This document shows positions 1 through 9,711 of a stretch of 64,000 nucleotides of DNA, one piece after another. Location of the stretch: positions 1 to 64,000 of the forward strand of contig JBDUXZ010000034.1 in NCBI GenBank assembly GCA_039944855.1, written 5' to 3'. Numbering within the stretch: position 1 is the stretch's first letter; each line of letters begins with the position of its first letter. The translations under genes and the position numbers were made by a program. Below the pieces are notes generated by a model that was not told where the DNA came from, ran no database searches, and was given only the letters and a program-made list of their open reading frames with translations. The stretch comes from Rhodothermales bacterium (GTDB lineage: Bacteria > Bacteroidota > Rhodothermia > Rhodothermales > JANQRZ01).

Positions 1-1
1 G

Positions 2-232
2 GCGGCGCTGCCGATCTTCTTCACGGGCTACGCCATCGAGCGGTGGGAGGGGGCGGTGTTCCTCGGCTGCTACGTCGCGTACACGGTCTATCTCATCCTC
101 GATGCGGCGGACCACGCGGCGCTCGACGAGTACGGTGCGGCTATGCTCTATTTCGTCCTGCCGCTGCTGGCGCTGACGCTGGCGGTGCTCGCGGCGCGCG
201 CCCTGCGTGGACAGCGGCAGATCGGGTCGTGA
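2..232 (+). CDS. Na+/Ca2+ exchanger family protein, C-terminal fragment
   Basis: The reading frame is open from the window edge and stops at TGA 230-232, giving the last 76 residues of a protein that starts outside the window. The segment PIFFTGYAIERWEGAVFL followed by a hydrophobic helix (YVAYTVYLILDAA) and a second one (MLYFVLPLLALTLAVLAARAL) matches the C-terminus of CaCA-superfamily (YrbG-like) K+-dependent or K+-independent Na+/Ca2+ antiporters, where a 'GY.I.RWEG' stretch precedes the last two membrane helices. These proteins exchange cytoplasmic Ca2+ for Na+ or H+ across the inner membrane. The transposon starting at 391 inserted about 160 bp downstream, so the gene itself is intact here. 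Nothing can be said about the ion-binding acidic motifs, which lie upstream of the window. Confidence 0.75.
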   Translation, partial: AALPIFFTGYAIERWEGAVFLGCYVAYTVYLILDAADHAALDEYGAAMLYFVLPLLALTLAVLAARALRGQRQIGS

Positions 233-382
233 AGCGGGCTAGGCATTTAAGGGGCGTTTCATGTCCCAGCCCCGGCCGTCCCCAACTTTAATCTCTCGTT
301 GATGCGAAGGGGGGGGCGATGTCACGAATTTAGGGGCTGTTCATCACGCAGTCCCTCGGCCTCAGCCGGGATCCTCACCCCT

Positions 383-390
383 TTAGTTTT
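383..390. repeat. 8-bp target-site duplication, left copy (TTAGTTTT)
   Basis: TTAGTTTT lies immediately outside the left inverted repeat and is repeated exactly at 4312-4319, immediately outside the right one. Eight base pairs is the duplication length known for IS1595-family transposition. Confidence 0.9.
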
Positions 391-421
391 CGCACCTGTA
401 AAGTTAGCGCACGTAGCCCCT
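391..421 (+). repeat. Left terminal inverted repeat
   Basis: The first 31 bases pair with the complement of 4281-4311 at 27 of 31 positions, and the outer 25 at 23 of 25. Only 56 bp separate it from the GTG start of the cargo gene, so any element-borne promoter for that gene must lie in or next to this repeat. Confidence 0.88.
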
Positions 422-477
422 GACGGTGAAAAGTTGGGGTTCGATGAAATCGGCGGGGCGAGGTTGTCGAAGGAAGC

Positions 478-3351
478 GTGAAGGCCGATATTCTCGGCAC
501 ACCCCTTGCCCCCCCTCTCTCTATGCCTCGACACACTCCCGCCGCCGCCCCTCTCTTCGAGGGCGAGCTTACCGCCGCGCCCCCGTCTTCTGCAATCCGG
601 CTCAACGCAGCCGGTCGCCTCGTCGATTTCCTAGACGCTGAGAAGACGCGGCCCGATACGCCGGAGGAACGGGTGAGACAGGAGTACGTCCGAACGCTCG
701 TCGAAGAGTACGGATACCCGAAGGAACTCATTGCCCTCTCGGTCCCGATCAGCACGGGGTCAACGCACACGAAGGAGGCAGACATCGCCGTGTACCTCAC
801 GCCGGAAGCGCGTGCCCACCGGAGGCAAGGGGAGATCGCGTTGATTGTCGAGACGAAAGCCCCGGACAAGACTATCGGGCAGAATCAACTGGCCTCCTAC
901 GTCTTCTTCACCTCGACAGCCGGGGCCGTTTGGACGAACGGTGCGGAGGCTACCTACTGGCGGCGGATGTGGAAGCCGCAGAACCACCTACGCGATTGGA
1001 CGAACATCCCTCGCTATGGGGAATCGTGGGATTCGGTGGGGCACTACACACACGGTCAGTTGCGACCGCCCCGGAACCTCAAACAGGTTTTCGACAGGTG
1101 CCACAACGCCATTTACAAGGCGGGGAGCGGGAGCGAGATGCTCGCTATGGACATGGTGAAGGTGATCCTAGCGAAGTACCAAGACGAGATGGAAGCGGAA
1201 GGGCCGGACTCCCTGTGTGCGTTCCGCTGCACGCCCGAAGAGGCCGAATCTGAGGAAGGGCGGGCGGCTGTGGCCCAGAGAGTAGCGAACCTCTTCGCGG
1301 CGGTCGTCGAGTCACACCCGGAAGTGTATAACGAGAGAGACGAGATCGGGATTGATCCGGCCCCCCTCGCAACCGTCGTCGGCGAACTGCAACCCTACCG
1401 CTTCGTCGCTGACTACGACGACGAACAGGTGTATGATGTGATAGGGACGGCCTTCGAGGTATACATGGCCGATCACCTCAAAGGGGAGAAAGGGCAGTGG
1501 TTCACGAACCGCTTGCTCGTCGGTGCGATGGTCGAGATGTTGGCCCCCACTGATAAGGACGTGATCCTCGACCCGGCGTGCGGGCCGGGCGGCTTCCTAG
1601 TGGCCTGCCTGCGCCGTGTACGGCATCACATCGCCCAAACCACGCCGTCACAGGTCGCACAGCACGCGAAGTTTCTAAAGGCGTCCAAGCGTGTCTTCGG
1701 GATCGACGTTGCTCCGCACCTCGTGAAGGTGGCGAAGACGAACATGATCCTTAACGGGGACGGGCACGGCGGGATCGTGCGAGGGAACACGCTACAGAGC
1801 CCCGTCAAGCTCCCCCCAGAGTTCAAATTGCGCCCGGACGCGGGCCGGTACAATCTGCGCCCAACCCGAATCTTCGCCAATCCGCCGTTCGGCGACAACC
1901 CCGAACTCCGGGTTAAAGACACGGAGATTCTAACGCAGTTCGAGGTCGGTCACGAGTGGGAACGCGGCGACGGGCATTGGCTACGCAAGACAAGCCGGAT
2001 AGTGACGGGAGGGGTCCCGCCCGAACTCCTGTTCTTGGAGCGGTGCATCGACTGGCTAGAGCCGGGCGGCAAGCTCGGCATCGTCATCGCGCGGGGTGCG
2101 CTCGACAACGTGAAGGCGCTAGCTGCCCGTCAGTACGTGCTGAGGCACGCCCGGCTGCTTGGGGTGATCCACGCGCACCCCAACACGTTCAAGCCGTTCA
2201 ACGGCACGAAGGCATCCGTTCTGCTCGTCGAGAAGAAGGGGCACGTAGGCTTCGAGCACGACGAGGATTACCCCGTCTTCATGGCGATAAACCAGAGCAT
2301 CGGCCAAGACTCAGAGGGGCGGGACGTATACAAGCGCGACAAGAACGGGAAGGTCGAAGTGGACGCCGACGGCGTGCCGGTGCTAGACCACGACCTCGAC
2401 ATGATCGCCCACGCTTGGGCGCAGTTCGAGAAGGGAGAGGAGCCGGATTACGAGGCGGCATGGACGGTGCCGCTGTCTCGTATCACGTCAACCCCTGAGA
2501 TGCGGTTCAACCCCACGCGCTACGCTCCGAAGGCGGAAGCGGCGTTGTCTGCCGTGCTAGAGATGGCAGGCTCCGATGAATGGGAGGTTGAGCAGATCGG
2601 CGACTTTGCCACCGTCTTCGAGGGGGAGCGTTTTAAGCGGCCCTATGCTAACAAGGGCGTAGACAGCGGCGAGGGCGTCGTCCGGTACTACACGCCGAAG
2701 GCTTTCTTCGAGGCGAGAGGCGAGAGCGCGAAATACCTCGACTGGAATAAGGCGAACGCTACCCAAGAGAGACAGCTCACGGAGCTGACGCTACAGACGG
2801 ATTGGATCGTCATTGCCAACGCGGGCACGGCGAAGAAGGGGGCGCTTGTTGGCAGGGTTGGACTCACGACGACCGAACACGCGGGCTCAATCGGTAGCAA
2901 CAACTTGACGCGGATCGTGGTCGAAGACCCCGAAAAACGCGCCTATCTCTACCGCTTCCTTCGCTCCGATCTAGGCCACGAACTGCTGTTGCGGAACGTG
3001 TACGGGACGAACCAAGATCACGTTGACCTCGACGACGTGAAGCGCATTCCGATCCCGTTCCCGAAAGACAAGTCGAGACTGCACGCGATAACGAAGCGTG
3101 TCGAGAAAGTGAAGTCGCTTCGTGAGCGCGCCGCCGTTCTCGACCGGGAGGCAGGCGAAGCACTAGACAGCGTGCTCAAAGACGTAATCAAAGCGAGCAC
3201 AGCCGAGAGTGCAGAGGATGCGCTACCGTTCCCCGATACCGATCTGTCCCCAACAGCACAGCGGACAATACAACGGATGCTAGACGAGGGCGACGACAAG
3301 GGAGCCGCTGACTTCCTTACGCAGCTTGGCGAAGCGTCGGAACCGGAGTAG
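478..3351 (+). CDS. Single-chain restriction-modification protein (nuclease, N6-adenine methylase and specificity domains)
   Basis: The 957-residue protein joins three activities. An HsdR_N-type PD-(D/E)xK nuclease domain covers about residues 60-170, with D102 and the ExK pair E125/K127. An N6-adenine methyltransferase covers about 320-640, with SAM motif DPACGPGG at 365 and catalytic NPPF at 468-471. A target-recognition, HsdS-like region covers about 690-905, ending in a helical 'conserved' segment rich in Arg and Glu. No helicase/translocase motor is present, so cutting is expected near the recognition site as in type IIG-like enzymes rather than at a distance as in type I. The GTG at 478 follows an AAGGAAG-like ribosome site; ATG 523 is an alternative start with no such site. 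The 3' end overlaps the convergent transposase gene by 35 bp. The gene lies wholly inside the transposon. Confidence 0.82.
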   Translation: MKADILGTPLAPPLSMPRHTPAAAPLFEGELTAAPPSSAIRLNAAGRLVDFLDAEKTRPDTPEERVRQEYVRTLVEEYGYPKELIALSVPISTGSTHTKEADIAVYLTPEARAHRRQGEIALIVETKAPDKTIGQNQLASYVFFTSTAGAVWTNGAEATYWRRMWKPQNHLRDWTNIPRYGESWDSVGHYTHGQLRPPRNLKQVFDRCHNAIYKAGSGSEMLAMDMVKVILAKYQDEMEAEGPDSLCAFRCTPEEAESEEGRAAVAQRVANLFAAVVESHPEVYNERDEIGIDPAPLATVVGELQPYRFVADYDDEQVYDVIGTAFEVYMADHLKGEKGQWFTNRLLVGAMVEMLAPTDKDVILDPACGPGGFLVACLRRVRHHIAQTTPSQVAQHAKFLKASKRVFGIDVAPHLVKVAKTNMILNGDGHGGIVRGNTLQSPVKLPPEFKLRPDAGRYNLRPTRIFANPPFGDNPELRVKDTEILTQFEVGHEWERGDGHWLRKTSRIVTGGVPPELLFLERCIDWLEPGGKLGIVIARGALDNVKALAARQYVLRHARLLGVIHAHPNTFKPFNGTKASVLLVEKKGHVGFEHDEDYPVFMAINQSIGQDSEGRDVYKRDKNGKVEVDADGVPVLDHDLDMIAHAWAQFEKGEEPDYEAAWTVPLSRITSTPEMRFNPTRYAPKAEAALSAVLEMAGSDEWEVEQIGDFATVFEGERFKRPYANKGVDSGEGVVRYYTPKAFFEARGESAKYLDWNKANATQERQLTELTLQTDWIVIANAGTAKKGALVGRVGLTTTEHAGSIGSNNLTRIVVEDPEKRAYLYRFLRSDLGHELLLRNVYGTNQDHVDLDDVKRIPIPFPKDKSRLHAITKRVEKVKSLRERAAVLDREAGEALDSVLKDVIKASTAESAEDALPFPDTDLSPTAQRTIQRMLDEGDDKGAADFLTQLGEASEPE

Positions 3352-4219
3352 CAACCTGAGTAAGCATCGCGCCGAAGATGCCCTCTTCGCTGTTCCGGTG
3401 GTTGTACCGGAACGTGTGCTCGTCTAGGTACCCCTGTAGCTTGCGCCGACTCACGCCCCGATGGATGCGAAGGATCGCGCTCTTCGGGTAGCTCCAAAAC
3501 CCCTCTAAGTGGTTCGTGTGGACGTTCTGCCCGTCGTCGGTCGTATAGGCGTACTGCCGCTGCTTGTGCAGCACGCGCCCGTGCTCGAAGCCATGATCGG
3601 GCAGCACGTCGTACACGTTGAGTTCGTCGGTGTAGACCGTCGTACCCTCTTCGATGTGCTGAGTAAGGAATGGCAGCACCGTTGCCCGCTGCACGTTGTC
3701 AACGGCCTTCACGACGATCTTCCCGCCGCGCTGGACTGCCCCGATCACGGGCACCTTCCGCGTGCCGCGCCCACGCTTCGAGACGCCCCGGATACGCGGG
3801 CGTCCGCCGATGTAGCACTCGTCGGCTTCCACGATACCCGACAGGGAAGGGGACTCGCCGAAACGAGAGCGGATGAGGTTGCACATCCGAAGGGCGGTCG
3901 GATACGAGACGCCGATCTCGCGTTCGATCTGCTTTGCCGAGAACCCCGCCCGCGTCTTTGAGAACTGCCAGATCACGAAGAACCAATCGGGCAGGGATAC
4001 GCGGGACTTCTCGAAGATCGTCCCCACCGTGGGGTGTACGTGAGAACCGCACTCCTGACACGAGTAGCACTTCCGCTCCACGATCAGATGATGCTTCGTG
4101 ACGCGCTCACACTTCCGGCACGGGATACCGTCCGGCCAACGTTGACGCCGGATGAAGTCGAGGCACCCTTCGGTCGTGCCGAAGAGGGTGAGGAAGTCGC
4201 GTAGGCAAAGCTCTTTCAC
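3317..4219 (-). CDS. IS1595-family transposase
   Basis: This 300-residue protein would move the surrounding element by DDE transposition. An N-terminal zinc ribbon has CxxC pairs at C34/C37 and C54/C57, typical of the Zn_Tnp_IS1595 domain. The catalytic ISXO2-like domain follows, with first Asp in EADECYIGGR (D133), second in VYTDELNVYD (D198) and a third acidic or Asn position in HTNHLEGFWS (N236 or E239), then the family's RxxLQGYLDEHTFRYN tail. The start codon is GTG (complement of 4217-4219); no strong ribosome site precedes it. Length is normal for the family and there is no frameshift, so it appears functional. It reads from the right end inward, converging on the R-M gene. Confidence 0.92.
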   Translation of the reverse strand: MKELCLRDFLTLFGTTEGCLDFIRRQRWPDGIPCRKCERVTKHHLIVERKCYSCQECGSHVHPTVGTIFEKSRVSLPDWFFVIWQFSKTRAGFSAKQIEREIGVSYPTALRMCNLIRSRFGESPSLSGIVEADECYIGGRPRIRGVSKRGRGTRKVPVIGAVQRGGKIVVKAVDNVQRATVLPFLTQHIEEGTTVYTDELNVYDVLPDHGFEHGRVLHKQRQYAYTTDDGQNVHTNHLEGFWSYPKSAILRIHRGVSRRKLQGYLDEHTFRYNHRNSEEGIFGAMLTQVATPVPTLRQAA

Positions 4220-4280
4220 AAGGTATCCCGTTGATGTAGAACAAGATACCTAATGAGGGTGTCAACCCATGTCACACCCT

Positions 4281-4311
4281 AGGGTGTACGTGCGGTAACT
4301 TTACAAGTGCG
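4281..4311 (-). repeat. Right terminal inverted repeat
   Basis: This is the partner of 391-421, read on the minus strand. It ends at 4311 and is followed directly by the duplicated target TTAGTTTT. Confidence 0.88.
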
Positions 4312-4319
4312 TTAGTTTT
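4312..4319. repeat. 8-bp target-site duplication, right copy (TTAGTTTT)
   Basis: Exact copy of 383-390. Removing 391-4319 would restore a continuous intergenic sequence leading into the lipoprotein gene at 4342. Confidence 0.9.
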
Positions 4320-4341
4320 TGCGTACGCATGTACGCCTACC

Positions 4342-4947
4342 ATGAAGCAGACCCTTTCCATCACGCTCGGCACGCTCGTCCTCGCTGGCGCACTCGTCGG
4401 CTGCCAGTCCCCGCCGCAAGACGACCTCACCGCTGCGCAGACCGCCCTCGCCGCCGCTGACGAGGCCGAAGCCGACCTCTACGTGGCCGACCTCTACGTC
4501 GCCGCGCAGGACTCCTTCGCCGCAGCTCAGGCCGAGATCGAAGCGCAGAACGCGGAGTCCCAGCTCTCCCGCAACTACGCCCGCTCCAAGTCCCTCCTCC
4601 AGTTCGTCACCGAGACGGCGACCCAGGCTCAGGCCGAGGTCGAGACGCGTAAGGTGGCGATGGTGGCGGAGACCGACGCCCTGATCCTGCAGGCCGACGA
4701 AGCCGTCGCCCAGGCGCAGGCGATCATGGCGCAGGTCCCGGCCGGCGAAGACAGCGAGCTCGCGCTCGTGACGGTCGGCGAGAGCGCCGGCACGGCGGCG
4801 TCGACGCTTGAAGAAGCGAAGGCAGCGCAGGCCGCAGGCGACACCGCCCGCGCGCACGAACTCGCGAAGACGGCCCTCGAGCAGGCGAACGCCCTCATCG
4901 AAGAGCTCAACGGTGCGATGACGACGACCGTGGCCCCGATCAGCTGA
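4342..4947 (+). CDS. DUF4398-type alanine-rich lipoprotein
   Basis: A 201-residue lipoprotein: the N-terminus is a signal peptide ending in the lipobox LAGALVGC, with the lipidated Cys at position 21. The mature part is almost wholly helical, built of Ala/Glu/Gln-rich heptad-like stretches such as AAQDSFAAAQAEIEAQ, as in DUF4398 periplasmic lipoproteins, whose molecular role is not established. The next gene downstream encodes a membrane protein with a similar Ala-rich helical part fused to a transpeptidase-like domain, so the two may act together in the envelope. The ATG is 22 bp from the transposon's target duplication, so the natural promoter was probably separated from the gene or replaced. 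A terminator-like hairpin follows at 4961-5011. Confidence 0.7.
   Translation: MKQTLSITLGTLVLAGALVGCQSPPQDDLTAAQTALAAADEAEADLYVADLYVAAQDSFAAAQAEIEAQNAESQLSRNYARSKSLLQFVTETATQAQAEVETRKVAMVAETDALILQADEAVAQAQAIMAQVPAGEDSELALVTVGESAGTAASTLEEAKAAQAAGDTARAHELAKTALEQANALIEELNGAMTTTVAPIS
4471..4500 (+). repeat. 15-bp tandem duplication inside the lipoprotein gene
   Basis: GCCGACCTCTACGT(G/C) occurs twice in direct succession, adding a second ADLYV unit to the protein in frame. Confidence 0.8.
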
Positions 4948-4960
4948 TCGCGGTGACGTG

Positions 4961-5011
4961 AAACCGCCGCCCCGGCCGTCACGCATGTGGCAGCCGGGGC
5001 GGTTTACTTTT
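4961..5011 (+). terminator. Rho-independent terminator after the lipoprotein gene
   Basis: AAACCGCC..CCCCGGC (4961-4976) pairs with GCCGGGGCGGTTT (4993-5005), followed by ACTTTT. A 3-base bulge in the left arm is needed. It ends 24 bp before the next start codon, which would partly uncouple the two genes. Confidence 0.7.
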
Positions 5012-5034
5012 GGCCCCCCGAGCCCGCCGCCCCG

Positions 5035-6240
5035 ATGCCGAACCGGATACCGCCCCGCCTCCTCATCGCCCTCAGCGTAGCGGCGCTGTTGGTCGGGGCC
5101 GGCTGGCTCGTCCTCCTCGTCGTGGCGCCCCAGCCGCCGGTGCAGGCGTTCGTGTCGGCGCAGCACGCGCTCGGGCAGGCGCGCGACGCCGAGGCGGCCC
5201 GCTACGCGCCGCGGGCGTACCGCGCCGCCGAGCGGGAGTGGGACGCCGCGATCGCCGCGTGGCAACTGGAGAACGGCCGCTTCTTCGCCCTCCGCGCGTA
5301 CGATGCCCTGGAATCCCAGGCCCTGCAGGCGGCGCGGACCGCGGAGCAGGCCCGCCTCCGCGCCGTCGCCACCCGCGACTCGCTCCGGTGGATGGCGACG
5401 GCCGGGGCCGATGTCGTCCGCGACCGGTTCCTCGTCGTCCACACGACGGCCCGGCAGATGCCGTTCGACTCCCTCCGCTACGCCGACATCGCGGCGGCCC
5501 GCACCCTCCTCGGTGATGCCGATGCGGCCGTGCGGCGCGGCGATTTCCTCGCGGCGGCGGGCAAGGTGGAGCGGGCGGCGCAGCGCCTGCACGCGGCCTA
5601 TGCCGAGGTCAGCGCCACGCTCGACCTCTACCTCGCCGACCTCGCGGCGTGGCAGGCGTGGCAGCAAGAGGCCATCGCGTGGTCCACCGAGCACGACGCG
5701 CCAGCGCTCGTCGTGGATAAGATGGCGCGGCGGTTGTTCGTCTACGTCGGCGGCGAGGTCCGGCACACGTTCCCCGTCGAGCTTGGACCGAACTGGATGG
5801 GGCCGAAGCGGCACGAGGGGGACGAGGCGACGCCGGAGGGCCGCTACCGCGTTCGCCGCAAGCGCGCCGTGGGCGCGGCCGACACCACGCTCGCGCTCGA
5901 ACTCGACTACCCCAACGCCGAGGACCGGCGCCGTTTTGAGGCCGAGCGCGCGGCGGGCACGCTTGCGCCGGACGCCCGCATCGGCGGGACCGTCGAGGTC
6001 CACGGAGCGGGTGGGCTCGGCACCGACTGGACCGATGGCGCTGTCGCGCTCGCCGATGCCGACGTGGAGGTCGTGTTCGACCTCGTGGGCGTCGGCACGC
6101 CCGTCGTCATCGTCGGCGCGCTGGAGGAGCCGGCTTTCCTGCGGCCCGCGCCCCCGCCCGACCCACTCGCGCCCCGGTCGACCCTCCCGATCTCCGCCAG
6201 CCCCGGTGCCTTCCCCCGACACGACCGCTCAGTCCGCTGA
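5035..6240 (+). CDS. Membrane-anchored L,D-transpeptidase-like protein lacking the catalytic cysteine
   Basis: Starting from ATG 5035 the 401-residue product has a short basic N-terminus and one membrane helix (LLIALSVAALLVGAGWLVLLVV). An Ala-rich helical region resembling DUF4398 follows to about residue 220. The C-terminal YkuD-type domain has VVDKMARRLFVY, a TPEGRYRV segment and the conserved VHGAGGLGTDWTDGAVAL block. In active L,D-transpeptidases this block reads HG..G.G.DWT.GC(V/I)AL; here H323 is kept but the nucleophile position is Ala336 (codon GCT). The fold is therefore recognisable but peptidoglycan cross-linking through a cysteine is not possible unless another residue replaces it. 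An upstream in-frame GTG at 4987 lies inside the terminator and is less likely as a start. It may serve as a peptidoglycan-binding or scaffold protein together with the lipoprotein encoded upstream. Confidence 0.78.
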   Translation: MPNRIPPRLLIALSVAALLVGAGWLVLLVVAPQPPVQAFVSAQHALGQARDAEAARYAPRAYRAAEREWDAAIAAWQLENGRFFALRAYDALESQALQAARTAEQARLRAVATRDSLRWMATAGADVVRDRFLVVHTTARQMPFDSLRYADIAAARTLLGDADAAVRRGDFLAAAGKVERAAQRLHAAYAEVSATLDLYLADLAAWQAWQQEAIAWSTEHDAPALVVDKMARRLFVYVGGEVRHTFPVELGPNWMGPKRHEGDEATPEGRYRVRRKRAVGAADTTLALELDYPNAEDRRRFEAERAAGTLAPDARIGGTVEVHGAGGLGTDWTDGAVALADADVEVVFDLVGVGTPVVIVGALEEPAFLRPAPPPDPLAPRSTLPISASPGAFPRHDRSVR

Positions 6241-6248
6241 CGCGAGCC

Positions 6249-7010
6249 TCAGTCCTCGTGCGAGGCGGGGGGGAGGGCGAGGCGGTAGCCGCGTCCGCGG
6301 ACGGTCTGGATCATGTCCTTGAGGTCGTACGCCTCCAGCTTGCGGCGGAGGAAGTACATGTACACGTCGACCATGTTGGTGCCCGTGTTGAAGTCGATGC
6401 CCCAGACGGCGTCGAGGATCTCGTCCCGCGTGCAGAGGGCTTCGGCGTGGTCCACGAGGAAGCGGAGGAGGGCGAACTCGCGCGGCGTCAGTTCCACCTC
6501 GTCATCGCGGACGAAAAAGCGGTGGGCGGTGAGGTCGAGGCGGAGGTCGCCGAAGCGGCGGACGGCGCGCTGCTCGCCCTCGGACGGGCGCGCCTCCTTG
6601 CAGGCGTCGACGAGGCGGCGGTAGGCGAGGACCTTCGCCTGCAGCAGGGCGAGGGAGATCGGGAACGAGAGGGCGTCGTCGGCCCCGGCGGCGATCGAGG
6701 CGACGGCCGCTTCGGGCTCGCCGCGCGTGAGGGCGATGACGGGGGCGCTCGCCGCCCGGCGCACGTGGTAGCAGAGCGTGTTGAAGGCCGGCGCGTCATC
6801 CATCGCCCACACCGCGAGCACGGCCTCGGCCGAGCCCGCCGCCTCGACGATCCGGCGTCCGTGGTCGGACAGCTCGTGCCGGTCGTTCACGAGCGGGCGG
6901 GGCGCGAACACCTCGATCCGATACGGAGGCGGACAACTGATCCGCACGGCCGCTTCCATCGCGGCATCGTCGCTGACGAGGCAGAGGGTGGGAGGGGAGG
7001 AGGACGGCAT
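6249..7010 (-). CDS. OmpR/PhoB-type response regulator with atypical receiver
   Basis: The 253-residue product has a receiver-like domain (about 8-125) and a C-terminal winged-helix DNA-binding domain (about 150-245) with ELTPREFALLRFLVDHAE, the DEILDAVWG loop and the terminal VRGRGYRLA hairpin. In the receiver, aligning VLAVWAMDDAPAF with the usual 'DLVLLDLMLP' strand puts Trp at the phosphoacceptor Asp position. The invariant Lys in the last strand is Phe (ALSFPIS instead of the usual TKPF). The early acidic pair D14/D15 is retained. DNA binding is thus expected while phosphorylation by a histidine kinase is doubtful, and no kinase gene is nearby. It is transcribed divergently from the DUF1015 gene across a 228-bp gap. 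A TTG 15 bp upstream is possible but less likely as start. Confidence 0.85.
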   Translation of the reverse strand: MPSSSPPTLCLVSDDAAMEAAVRISCPPPYRIEVFAPRPLVNDRHELSDHGRRIVEAAGSAEAVLAVWAMDDAPAFNTLCYHVRRAASAPVIALTRGEPEAAVASIAAGADDALSFPISLALLQAKVLAYRRLVDACKEARPSEGEQRAVRRFGDLRLDLTAHRFFVRDDEVELTPREFALLRFLVDHAEALCTRDEILDAVWGIDFNTGTNMVDVYMYFLRRKLEAYDLKDMIQTVRGRGYRLALPPASHED

Positions 7011-7238
7011 CGGCGGAGGGGGCAAAGGGAGGCGGGGCGGACGAAGGTAACGAGTCTGCCGTGCCCCGCGGTGCAGCGGTGCCGCCGCACGCCGATCGGA
7101 GGGAGATGGCGGCGCTGGAACCGTCCCGGTCCGTCGTCTTTATCTTCCACTGCCCGCCCCGCCCGGACACGTCTGCCGCGCGGGGGCTAGCTTGGCCTCT
7201 CCTCCTCGCCGCTCTCCCCTCCGACGCCCCGCATCTTC

Positions 7239-8435
7239 ATGGCTACCGTCCTCCCGTTCCGCGCCCTGCGTCCCGCCCCCGACCACGCGCTGGACGTCGC
7301 CTCCGTCCCGTACGACGTCATCAACACGGAGGAGGCCCGGCGCCTCGCCGAGGGCAAGCCGTTCTCGTTCCTCCACGTCATCCGCCCGGAGATCGACCTG
7401 CCCGAGGGAACGGACGAGCACGACGACGGCGTCTATGAGCAGGGGGCCGAGGCGCTCCGCCGCTTCGCCGAGAGCGACGTGTTCGTGACCGAGGCCGAGC
7501 CCGCGTTCTACGTCTACCGCCTCGTGATGGACGGCCGCCCGCAGGTCGGCATCTTCGGGCTCGTCACCGTCGCCGAGTACGACGACGACACGATCCTCAA
7601 GCACGAGAAGACGCGGCCCGACAAAGAGGACGACCGCACGCGCCACATCGTCACGCAGCAGGCCCACGCCGAGCCCGTGATGCTGACGTACCGAGGCTCC
7701 GCACGCGTCAACGACCTCGTGAAGGACGCGATGCAGGGCGATCCGCTCTACGGCTTCACCGCCACCGACGGCGTCCGCCACGAAATCTGGCGGATGCCCG
7801 ACGCCGACGCCGTCCGCGACGCCTTCGCCGAGGTCGCGAAGCTCTACGTCGCCGACGGGCACCACCGCTCGGCCGCCGCGAGCCGCGCCGCGAAAGAGCT
7901 GCCGGACCGCCCCGACGCCGGCGCGTTCATGGCCGTCCTCTTCCCGTACGAGGAGATGGCGATCCTCCCGTACAACCGCGTGATCTACGACCTCCCCGGC
8001 GGGCCCGACGCCTTCCTCGACCAACTCCGCGACCGCTTCGAACTCAACGAGCAGGCCCCCGCCGCGCCGGCCGCGCCCGGCCACGTCTCGCTCTACCTCG
8101 GCGGTCGCTGGTACGGCCTCGCCCTGCCAGAGACCGAGCGCGACACCGTCGCCGACACGCTCGACGTGGCCCGCCTCGGCGAGCACGTCCTCGAACCGCT
8201 CCTCGGCATCACGGACCCGCGGACGGACCCGAACATCGGCTTCGTCGGCGGCATCCGGGGGACGAAGGAGCTGGAGCGGCTCGTGGACGAAGGCAACGCG
8301 CAGTTCGCCATTTCGATGTTCGCGACGCAGCCCGAACAGCTCCTCGCCGTCTCCGATGCGGGGCAACTCATGCCGCCGAAGTCGACGTGGTTCGAACCCA
8401 AGCTCCGCAGCGGCCTCCTCGTGCATCAGTTTTGA
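7239..8435 (+). CDS. DUF1015 family protein
   Basis: This 398-residue protein has the features of the DUF1015 family: an N-terminal PFRALRP, the SVPYDVINTEEAR segment, a KHEKTRPDKEDDR block around 125-135 and the YVADGHHRSAAASRAAKE motif around 205-220. Its biochemical activity is not established. In many Bacteroidota the gene sits beside serC and serA, and here serA follows after 73 bp, supporting a link with the phosphoserine pathway or a shared regulon. The gap to serA carries a G-rich and a C-rich arm that could form a weak hairpin (about 8440-8508). No serC is in the window. Confidence 0.85.
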   Translation: MATVLPFRALRPAPDHALDVASVPYDVINTEEARRLAEGKPFSFLHVIRPEIDLPEGTDEHDDGVYEQGAEALRRFAESDVFVTEAEPAFYVYRLVMDGRPQVGIFGLVTVAEYDDDTILKHEKTRPDKEDDRTRHIVTQQAHAEPVMLTYRGSARVNDLVKDAMQGDPLYGFTATDGVRHEIWRMPDADAVRDAFAEVAKLYVADGHHRSAAASRAAKELPDRPDAGAFMAVLFPYEEMAILPYNRVIYDLPGGPDAFLDQLRDRFELNEQAPAAPAAPGHVSLYLGGRWYGLALPETERDTVADTLDVARLGEHVLEPLLGITDPRTDPNIGFVGGIRGTKELERLVDEGNAQFAISMFATQPEQLLAVSDAGQLMPPKSTWFEPKLRSGLLVHQF

Positions 8436-8508
8436 GTAGTGGGTTTGGGGTGGTGGGCACGTGCTCGTCAACCCTCAACCTCCCACCCCCAACCTCTAAC
8501 CCACCCCC

Positions 8509-9711
8509 ATGAACGTCCTCATCGCCGACTCCTTTTCCGACCTCGGCATCGAACGCCTTCGCGAAGCCGGCCACGCCGTCACCGTCGAGGCCGGGCTCAA
8601 GGGCACTGCCCTGACCGAAGCGCTCGCCCGGCACGCGCCGCAGGTGCTCGTCGTCCGCTCGACGAAGGTCACTGCCGCCGACTTCGACGCCGACCCCGAA
8701 CTCGAGCTCATCGTCCGTGCGGGCGCGGGGTACGACACCATCGACGTCGAGGGCGCGTCGCAGCGGGGGATCTTCGTCGCCAACTGCCCCGGCAAGAACG
8801 CGACGGCCGTGGCCGAGCTCGCCTTCGGGCTGATCCTCAGCCTCGACCGGCAGATCCCGGACAACGTGGCCGAGGCGCGGCAGGGGCGGTGGAACAAGGG
8901 CGCGTTCTCCGAGGCCTTCGGCATCAAGGGCAGCACGCTCGGGCTCATCGGGCTCGGCTCGATCGGGCAGGAGATGATCCCCCGCGCGAAGGCGTTCGGC
9001 ATGCGCGTCGCCGCGTGGAGCCGCTCGCTCACCGACGAGACCGCCGCCGAGCTCGGCGTGGCCCGGATGGAAACGCCCCACGCCGTCGCCGCTGTCGCCG
9101 ACATTATCTCCGTCCACGTGGCCTCCACCCCGCAGACCGAGGGGCTCATCGACCGCGCGTTTTTCGAGGCGATGGAGCCCAATACCTTCCTCATCAACAC
9201 CTCGCGGGCCTCCGTCGTGGACGAGGAGGCAGCGCAGTGGGCGATGGACGAGAAGAACATCCGCTTCGCGACGGACGTGCCCGCCGGCGAGCCCGCAGGG
9301 AAGGAAGGGACGTTCGAGCACCCGCTCCTCGGCCACGCCAACTTCTACGTCACCCACCACATCGGCGCCTCGACGGAGCAGGCGACGGAGGCGATCGGGA
9401 ACGAGGCCGTCCGCGTCGTGACGGCGTACGCCGAGACGGGCCGCGTCCCGAACTGCGTCAACCTCGCCGAGCAGTCGCCCGCCACGCACCTCCTCACCGT
9501 CCGCCACCGCGACCGCGTCGGCGTGCTCGCGCACGTGCTCGACGCCGTGAGCAAGGCGGGGTGGAACGTGCAGGAGATGGAGAACCTGATCTTCGCCGGG
9601 GCCGAGGCCGCCTGCGCCCGCATCCGCTTCGACGGCGACCCGAACGACGCGACGCTCGCCGCGATCCGAGGGCAGGGCGACGTGCTCGCCGCGTCCGTGA
9701 TCGAGCTCTAG
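8509..9711 (+). CDS. serA: D-3-phosphoglycerate dehydrogenase
   Basis: Catalyses NAD-dependent oxidation of 3-phosphoglycerate to 3-phosphohydroxypyruvate, the first committed step of serine synthesis in the cytoplasm. The 400-residue chain has the substrate-binding half, a Rossmann GLGSIG nucleotide motif (148-153), catalytic Arg233 in NTSRASVVDEEA, Glu261 in DVPAGEP and His284 in HHIGAST. A C-terminal ACT domain (about 328-400, HLLTVRHRDRVGVLAHVLD) is expected to sense serine. DUF1015 lies upstream, as commonly seen next to serA in this phylum. The stop TAG is followed after one base by the GTG of the next gene, so the two are probably translated from one message. Confidence 0.9.
   Translation: MNVLIADSFSDLGIERLREAGHAVTVEAGLKGTALTEALARHAPQVLVVRSTKVTAADFDADPELELIVRAGAGYDTIDVEGASQRGIFVANCPGKNATAVAELAFGLILSLDRQIPDNVAEARQGRWNKGAFSEAFGIKGSTLGLIGLGSIGQEMIPRAKAFGMRVAAWSRSLTDETAAELGVARMETPHAVAAVADIISVHVASTPQTEGLIDRAFFEAMEPNTFLINTSRASVVDEEAAQWAMDEKNIRFATDVPAGEPAGKEGTFEHPLLGHANFYVTHHIGASTEQATEAIGNEAVRVVTAYAETGRVPNCVNLAEQSPATHLLTVRHRDRVGVLAHVLDAVSKAGWNVQEMENLIFAGAEAACARIRFDGDPNDATLAAIRGQGDVLAASVIEL

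What the first reader, a model, noticed from the sequence alone, without database searches (positions are those of the whole stretch)
383..4319. Complete IS1595-family transposon with restriction-modification cargo
Seen: two inverted 25-bp ends matching at 23 positions, flanked by an exact 8-bp direct repeat (TTAGTTTT), around an intact IS1595-type transposase and a 957-residue restriction-modification gene. IS1595 elements are known to make 8-bp duplications and sometimes carry passengers. A defence gene moved by a simple DDE element, without recombinases or plasmid genes, is unusual and offers a direct way for single-chain R-M systems to spread.
Basis: partly seen in the sequence, partly recalled or inferred. 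Interest (0 to 1): 0.85.

Follow-up and report, generated by a model that had tools for sequence, protein, structure and literature searches.

The report
Small transposon carrying a restriction-modification enzyme
A simple two-gene jumping element (IS1595 family) carries a one-protein restriction-modification enzyme, and a survey of related bacteria shows that sister elements repeatedly pick up different restriction or anti-phage systems, so these small elements look like a recurrent vehicle for bacterial DNA defence.

Summary
An IS1595-family transposase (3317-4219, -) and a 957-aa single-chain nuclease-methyltransferase-specificity protein (478-3351, +) lie between imperfect terminal inverted repeats (391-421 / 4281-4311, 27/31), flanked by an exact 8-bp repeat (TTAGTTTT, 383-390 / 4312-4319). 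It is the only such structure in 64 kb. It is single-copy, and no congener is held, so its own empty site could not be tested. The kind was tested instead. In the same order, 12 of 32 IS1595 elements delimited by TIR plus 8-bp TSD carry methyltransferase or R-M genes: type II pairs, MTase-HNH or MTase-Mrr fusions, single-chain R-M-S. The closest transposase relative carries a full PD-Lambda-5 defence pair. Six of eight RM-bearing elements have contiguous unoccupied sites in sister species. One element interrupts another's MTase gene, and the joined flanks read as one ORF. N6_N4 MTases lie within 3 kb of an IS1595 transposase 12 times more often than expected. Near-identical transposases carry different cargo, and one cassette carries an MTase without a transposase. 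The recurrent RM/defence cargo is the new part. Activity is inferred, not shown.

The parts
383..390 (.). left copy of 8-bp target-site duplication TTAGTTTT
   Evidence: exact match to 4312-4319
391..421 (+). left terminal inverted repeat (31 nt; 23/25 over the outer 25, 27/31 overall)
478..3351 (+). single-chain restriction-modification protein (957 aa; a start at ATG 523 would give 942 aa): HSDR_N_2 nuclease-like domain, N6 adenine MTase, Methylase_S target-recognition domain
   Evidence: Pfam, PADLOC MTase_I/II and MAD2/MAD5-like matches, RM.BsaXI homology, D..ExK and DPACGPGG/NPPF motifs
3317..4219 (-). IS1595-family DDE transposase (300 aa), convergent with the RM gene and overlapping its 3' end by 35 nt
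   Evidence: PF12762 9e-37, PF12760 1e-6; NF033547 176 bits; catalytic residues conserved
4281..4311 (-). right terminal inverted repeat
4312..4319 (.). right copy of 8-bp target-site duplication TTAGTTTT

Best explanation
Positions 391-4311 are a complete two-gene transposon of the IS1595 family: one DDE transposase and one passenger, a single-chain restriction-modification enzyme of the nuclease-MTase-specificity kind (type IIG / BcgI-like). The transposase is expected to act on both ends and insert the unit into AT-rich DNA with an 8-bp target duplication. The passenger is expected to methylate the host's copies of its target and cut unmodified DNA, protecting the cell and penalising loss of the element. 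Shown by sequence: boundaries, intact genes, domain content, conserved motifs, TSD. Shown on relatives: the same class of element carrying RM cargo inserts exactly between these ends with 8-bp duplication (empty sites, nested insertion), and closely related transposases carry different R-M or defence cargo. Inferred: present activity of this copy, restriction activity, and spread between cells on plasmids or phages.
For: Window anatomy. Same-kind elements delimited by TIR plus exact 8-bp TSD with R-M cargo: L041, L046, L051 (two, nested), L074, L159, L160, L163, L169, L181, L182. Elements whose contigs end at the TIRs: L066 (MAD2-like M plus S) and L067 (EcoRI-type MTase plus REase). Closest transposase relative, L037, carries full-length PD-Lambda-5 A and B. 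Same single-chain architecture beside an IS1595 transposase: L191 (PADLOC type IIG, 628 bits), L182 (frameshifted), and metagenomic L221 and L284 with exact TSDs. Empty sites with one TSD copy for six of eight elements. Nested insertion whose joined flanks give a 452-aa ORF colinear with intact L046 MTase, 62% identity. 18 of 140 PF01555 loci within 3 kb of an IS1595 transposase, 1.5 expected.
Against: Window element is single-copy and its own empty site could not be found. No expression, transposition, methylation or restriction data. The N-terminal HSDR_N_2 domain occurs in MAD2-like methyltransferases whose nuclease motif may be lost (L204), so a modification-only role is possible. The AlphaFold model was of low confidence (pLDDT 41) and was not used. 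The MTase density contrast used profiles built from cargo; one search is free of that bias but ignores clustering and correlated genomes.
Confidence: 0.88

Rival explanations
1. The passenger is a modification-only or regulatory methyltransferase (MAD2-like fused to a MAD5-like specificity domain), not a restriction system; the element spreads a DNA methylation pattern rather than restriction.
For: Best named profile is MAD2 (NF047738, 4e-106, but 356 bits against a cut-off of 720) with a MAD5-like C-terminus. In one relative beside a kinase gene the nuclease motif is lost (L204).
Against: The D..ExK motif is kept in the window protein and in the stand-alone relatives L066, L148, L205, none of which has a separate R gene beside it in the stretch seen. 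The type IIG profile match of the analogous L191 cargo shows that single-chain R-M enzymes ride such elements.
Confidence: 0.2
2. Defence-island coincidence: an IS1595 element and an R-M gene are neighbours, and the outer repeats arose by chance or belong to a rearranged structure.
For: R-M genes and IS elements both accumulate in variable regions; no empty site for the window.
Against: TIR plus TSD unique in the window and not reached in random sequence; eleven other RM-bearing elements in the order with exact TSDs; empty sites join exactly at the predicted boundaries; RM gene and transposase are packed convergently with overlapping 3' ends.
Confidence: 0.05
3. Degenerate resident: once a transposon, now fixed and no longer mobile.
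For: Single copy; four mismatches in 31 TIR positions; only IS1595 transposase in the genome.
Against: Both genes open, catalytic residues conserved, TSD still exact, base composition still unlike the flank.
Confidence: 0.25

Closest known systems
IS1595 family 'transporter IS' (Siguier, Gagnevin and Chandler 2009, as cited in PMC3129680)
   Same: Single DDE_Tnp_IS1595 transposase with zinc ribbon, TIRs, passenger gene between the ends; 8-bp TSD (family TSD size from general knowledge)
   Different: The passenger here is a complete single-chain R-M enzyme; the 2009 paper was not available, so whether it lists methyltransferase passengers could not be checked
Tn7-like transposons with defence cargo (PMC8649781: R-M in 947 elements)
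   Same: DDE-mobilised defence cargo within TIRs
   Different: Those are multi-protein, site-targeting, large elements; this one has one transposase gene, 3.9 kb, one cargo gene, AT-rich target
R-M units inserted with short target duplication and imperfect inverted repeats, 'unlinked to any mobile element' (review PMC3874152, citing Furuta 2010)
   Same: R-M cassette with imperfect terminal repeats and short target duplication
   Different: Here the transposase is present and identified; the transposase-less L171 cassette (7206-8744) resembles the unexplained kind
Composite transposons and IS-linked R-M movement (PaeR7I, PMC3031569)
   Same: IS-driven movement of R-M genes
   Different: Requires flanking IS copies or cointegration; here R-M lies inside one element's own ends
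BsaXI/BcgI-type and type IIG restriction enzymes; MADS MAD2/MAD5
   Same: Nuclease-like domain plus N6 MTase, with S/TRD (RM.BsaXI; MAD2/MAD5)
   Different: R, M and S fused in one chain; no other MAD genes; not above the MAD2 cut-off

Membership tests
IS1595 family transposon | IS1595-type DDE transposase domain over curated cut-off | tested here: met
   PF12762 126.8 bits (cut-off 27), NF033547 176.3 bits (cut-off 75)
IS1595 family transposon | catalytic acidic residues and zinc ribbon intact | tested here: met
   D133, D198, N236, E239, K246, C34/C37/C54/C57 invariant in 14-sequence alignment
IS1595 family transposon | terminal inverted repeats and 8-bp target duplication | tested here: met
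   27/31 TIR, exact TTAGTTTT; same size in relatives
IS1595 family transposon | assignment to an ISfinder subgroup | not testable with these tools
   ISfinder not available
IS1595 family transposon | transposition demonstrated | not testable with these tools
   needs a bench assay; for relatives, empty sites and a nested insertion show past transposition
Single-chain type IIG-like restriction-modification enzyme | PD-(D/E)XK-type nuclease domain in the same chain | tested here: inconclusive
   HSDR_N_2 5e-19 with D..ExK motif; activity untested
Single-chain type IIG-like restriction-modification enzyme | N6 adenine MTase with motif I and NPPF | tested here: met
   PF02384 5e-23; DPACGPGG and NPPF present
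Single-chain type IIG-like restriction-modification enzyme | target-recognition domain in the same chain | tested here: met
   PF01420 2e-6 at 700-865, MAD5-like 9e-29
MADS defence system | MAD2 over cut-off with the other MAD genes alongside | tested here: not met
   MAD2 355.7 bits, cut-off 720; only two genes in the element
Tn7-like transposon | several transposition genes (TnsA/B/C type) | tested here: not met
   one transposase gene only, IS1595 type
Composite transposon | two flanking IS copies | tested here: not met
   one IS1595 transposase in the whole genome

The most novel reading that the evidence does not exclude
IS1595-family transposons of this bacterial order form a dedicated exchange platform for DNA-defence genes: related transposases swap complete, mutually unrelated R-M or defence cassettes between the same kind of ends, and transposase-less cassettes (such as L171, an MTase-HNH gene between TIRs with an 8-bp TSD) move in trans. 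This would supply a transposase for R-M units reported to insert with short duplications and imperfect inverted repeats without any known mobile element.
Probability: 0.5. Interest if true: 0.85.

Novelty: new variant of a known kind. Interest (0 to 1): 0.72.

Why it matters
It ties a minimal, single-transposase element to repeated carriage of R-M and anti-phage systems, giving a concrete route by which such systems spread without phages, plasmids or integrases of their own. It makes testable an old question: how R-M units bounded by imperfect inverted repeats and short duplications move. Because the cargo can penalise its own loss, it may also explain how such elements persist at low copy.

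Tried and rejected
Empty site of the window element: flank proteins and DNA against the two same-family genomes gave synteny only from 7239 onward, so not testable. IMG/VR scan with the window's exact TIR pattern: no match. AlphaFold of the RM protein on a 5-sequence alignment: pLDDT 41, discarded. Closest homologous transposases on plasmids: of the five stretches viewed, four (L199-L202) show no annotated R-M beside IS1595; in L203 a DNA methyltransferase gene lies about 4 kb from the transposase, separated from it by five other genes. Rfam: nothing in 1-8000. Idea that L066 is multi-copy because its contig ends at the TIRs: only one copy assembled, so the contig break suggests but does not show multiple copies. 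MADS membership rejected on score and gene content.

Full report
OBSERVATION. The window holds TTAGTTTT at 383-390 and 4312-4319, enclosing inverted ends 391-421 / 4281-4311 that match at 23 of 25 outer positions and 27 of 31 overall. Between them are two genes facing each other, with 3' ends overlapping by 35 nt: 478-3351 (+, 957 aa) and 3317-4219 (-, 300 aa). No other exact 8-bp repeat pair 0.5-8 kb apart in the 64-kb window is joined to TIRs of even 18/26, and the best of 30 Markov-random sequences of that length reached 20/26 against 23/26 here. Element GC is 0.61, right flank 0.69. The element is single-copy and its transposase is the only IS1595 transposase in the genome.

THE TRANSPOSASE. 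It matches PF12762 (9e-37), PF12760 (1e-6) and NF033547 over its cut-off. In a 14-sequence alignment the catalytic residues D133, D198, E239 with N236 and K246, and the four Zn cysteines, are invariant.

THE PASSENGER. Its order is HSDR_N_2 nuclease-like domain (62-168), N6_Mtase (319-589), Methylase_S (700-865). RM.BsaXI is the best solved relative. NCBIfam gives MAD2 at 4e-106 but half the cut-off score, and MAD5 for the C-terminus. In relatives M and S are two genes: L066 in an IS1595 element, L148 beside phage genes, L205 on a plasmid. These stand-alone relatives and the window protein keep the D..ExK motif, whereas L204, beside a kinase gene, has lost it. This favours a real nuclease-methyltransferase in one chain, but activity is not shown.

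IS IT A KIND? In 114 genomes of the order, 30 have an IS1595 transposase. Among fetched loci, 32 elements of this order could be delimited by TIR plus TSD (almost all exact, a few 7/8): 13 without clear cargo, 7 with other passengers, and 12 with methyltransferase or R-M cargo (my grouping; copies of one element within a genome are counted apart in the group without cargo). Cargo includes MTase plus type II REase (L160, REase profile 286 bits), MTase-HNH (L046, L051 twice, L163, L181), MTase-Mrr (L159, L169), an MTase with a second ORF without a Pfam match (L041), an Eco57I-like MTase with a weakly Tsp45I-like partner (L074), and a frameshifted single-chain R-M-S (L182). Further cases with less complete boundaries: L037, the closest transposase relative, with full-length PD-Lambda-5 A and B; L066 and L067, whose contigs end at the TIRs; L174; and L191, a type IIG enzyme. 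Outside the order RM cargo is rarer: none in 13 delimited elements elsewhere in the phylum by motif screen, two of 34 delimited in viral-contig loci (L221, L284), both single-chain enzymes like the window's, plus Chloroflexi L034 and L035.

CONTROLS. With the Pfam model PF01555, which owes nothing to these elements, 18 of 140 MTase loci in 17 genomes lie within 3 kb of an IS1595 transposase, where 1.5 are expected from the covered fraction (binomial 1.6e-14, ignoring clustering). These genomes were chosen partly because they carry such elements, so the ratio applies to them. One search found MTases inside elements far more densely than in flanks, but with profiles trained on cargo.

DID THEY MOVE? 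I joined 220 bp of each flank of eight RM-bearing elements, keeping one TSD copy, and searched sister species. Six gave contiguous unoccupied sites spanning the junction (L159 at 96% identity; L169, L163, L181, L160, L074 at 82-88%); L041 and L182 did not. At the junction a single copy of the 8 bp is present, identical in L159, L181 and L160 and diverged in the others. In L051 one IS1595 element lies in the MTase-HNH gene of another; joining its flanks gives one 452-aa ORF colinear with intact L046 (62%). So elements of this kind carrying RM genes have transposed with exactly these boundaries.

CARGO TURNOVER. On the transposase tree the RM label needs 11 changes, at least 7 forced by well-supported branches. 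L159, L160, L163 and L169 form one supported clade with four different cargoes; L074 and L179 are near neighbours, one with and one without R-M. L171 holds a 1539-bp cassette with TIR 25/26, exact TSD TTCATTTT and an MTase-HNH gene but no transposase.

WHAT IS KNOWN. R-M genes on transposons, and R-M between IS copies, are established (PMC3031569, PMC4176335). Tn7-like transposons often carry R-M (PMC8649781). Passenger-bearing 'transporter IS' were described with the IS1595 family (cited in PMC3129680). A review notes R-M units that insert with short duplications and imperfect inverted repeats unlinked to any mobile element (PMC3874152). Full-text searches for IS1595 with R-M, methyltransferase or defence cargo turned up no paper whose listing or the passages read report this association, but the library is open-licence only and the 2009 paper and Furuta 2010 were not read, so prior mention cannot be excluded. 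From memory, methyltransferase passengers have been noted in some ISs.

VERDICT. The window element is a complete IS1595-family transposon with a single-chain R-M passenger (0.88). The recurrence of defence cargo on this small platform is the part worth following. Limits: no congener for the window, draft genomes, unnamed hosts, no bench data.

Noticed in passing
L171:7206-8744: Transposase-less cassette: MTase-HNH gene between IS1595-type TIRs (25/26) with exact TSD TTCATTTT, next to another IS1595 end.
   Followed up: partly
L037:6694-10471: Element in a same-family genome with 24/24 TIR (TSD not recognisable) carrying full-length PD-Lambda-5 A and B defence genes.
   Followed up: partly
L051:8176-13038: IS1595 element nested inside the MTase-HNH cargo gene of another IS1595 element, both with exact 8-bp TSDs.
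   Followed up: yes
L148:5680-9242: MAD2-like nuclease-MTase plus S subunit inserted among phage structural and terminase-like genes in a viral contig.
   Followed up: no
L066:1-4714 and L067:2-3314: Contigs that begin and end at the TIRs of an RM-bearing element, suggesting repeats that broke the assembly; only one L066 copy was assembled.
   Followed up: partly
window 4312-4342: The insertion lies 22 nt upstream of the start codon of a predicted lipoprotein gene (4342-4947), so it may separate that gene from its promoter.
   Followed up: no
L182:10301-12521: Single-chain R-M-S cargo split in two reading frames, apparently a frameshift, in an element with exact TSD CTTCCCAT.
   Followed up: no
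L111, L114, L115, L116, L121, L123, L144: IS1595 elements elsewhere in the phylum, 3-8 kb long, carry small lipoprotein- or membrane-like passengers of unknown function rather than R-M genes.
   Followed up: no
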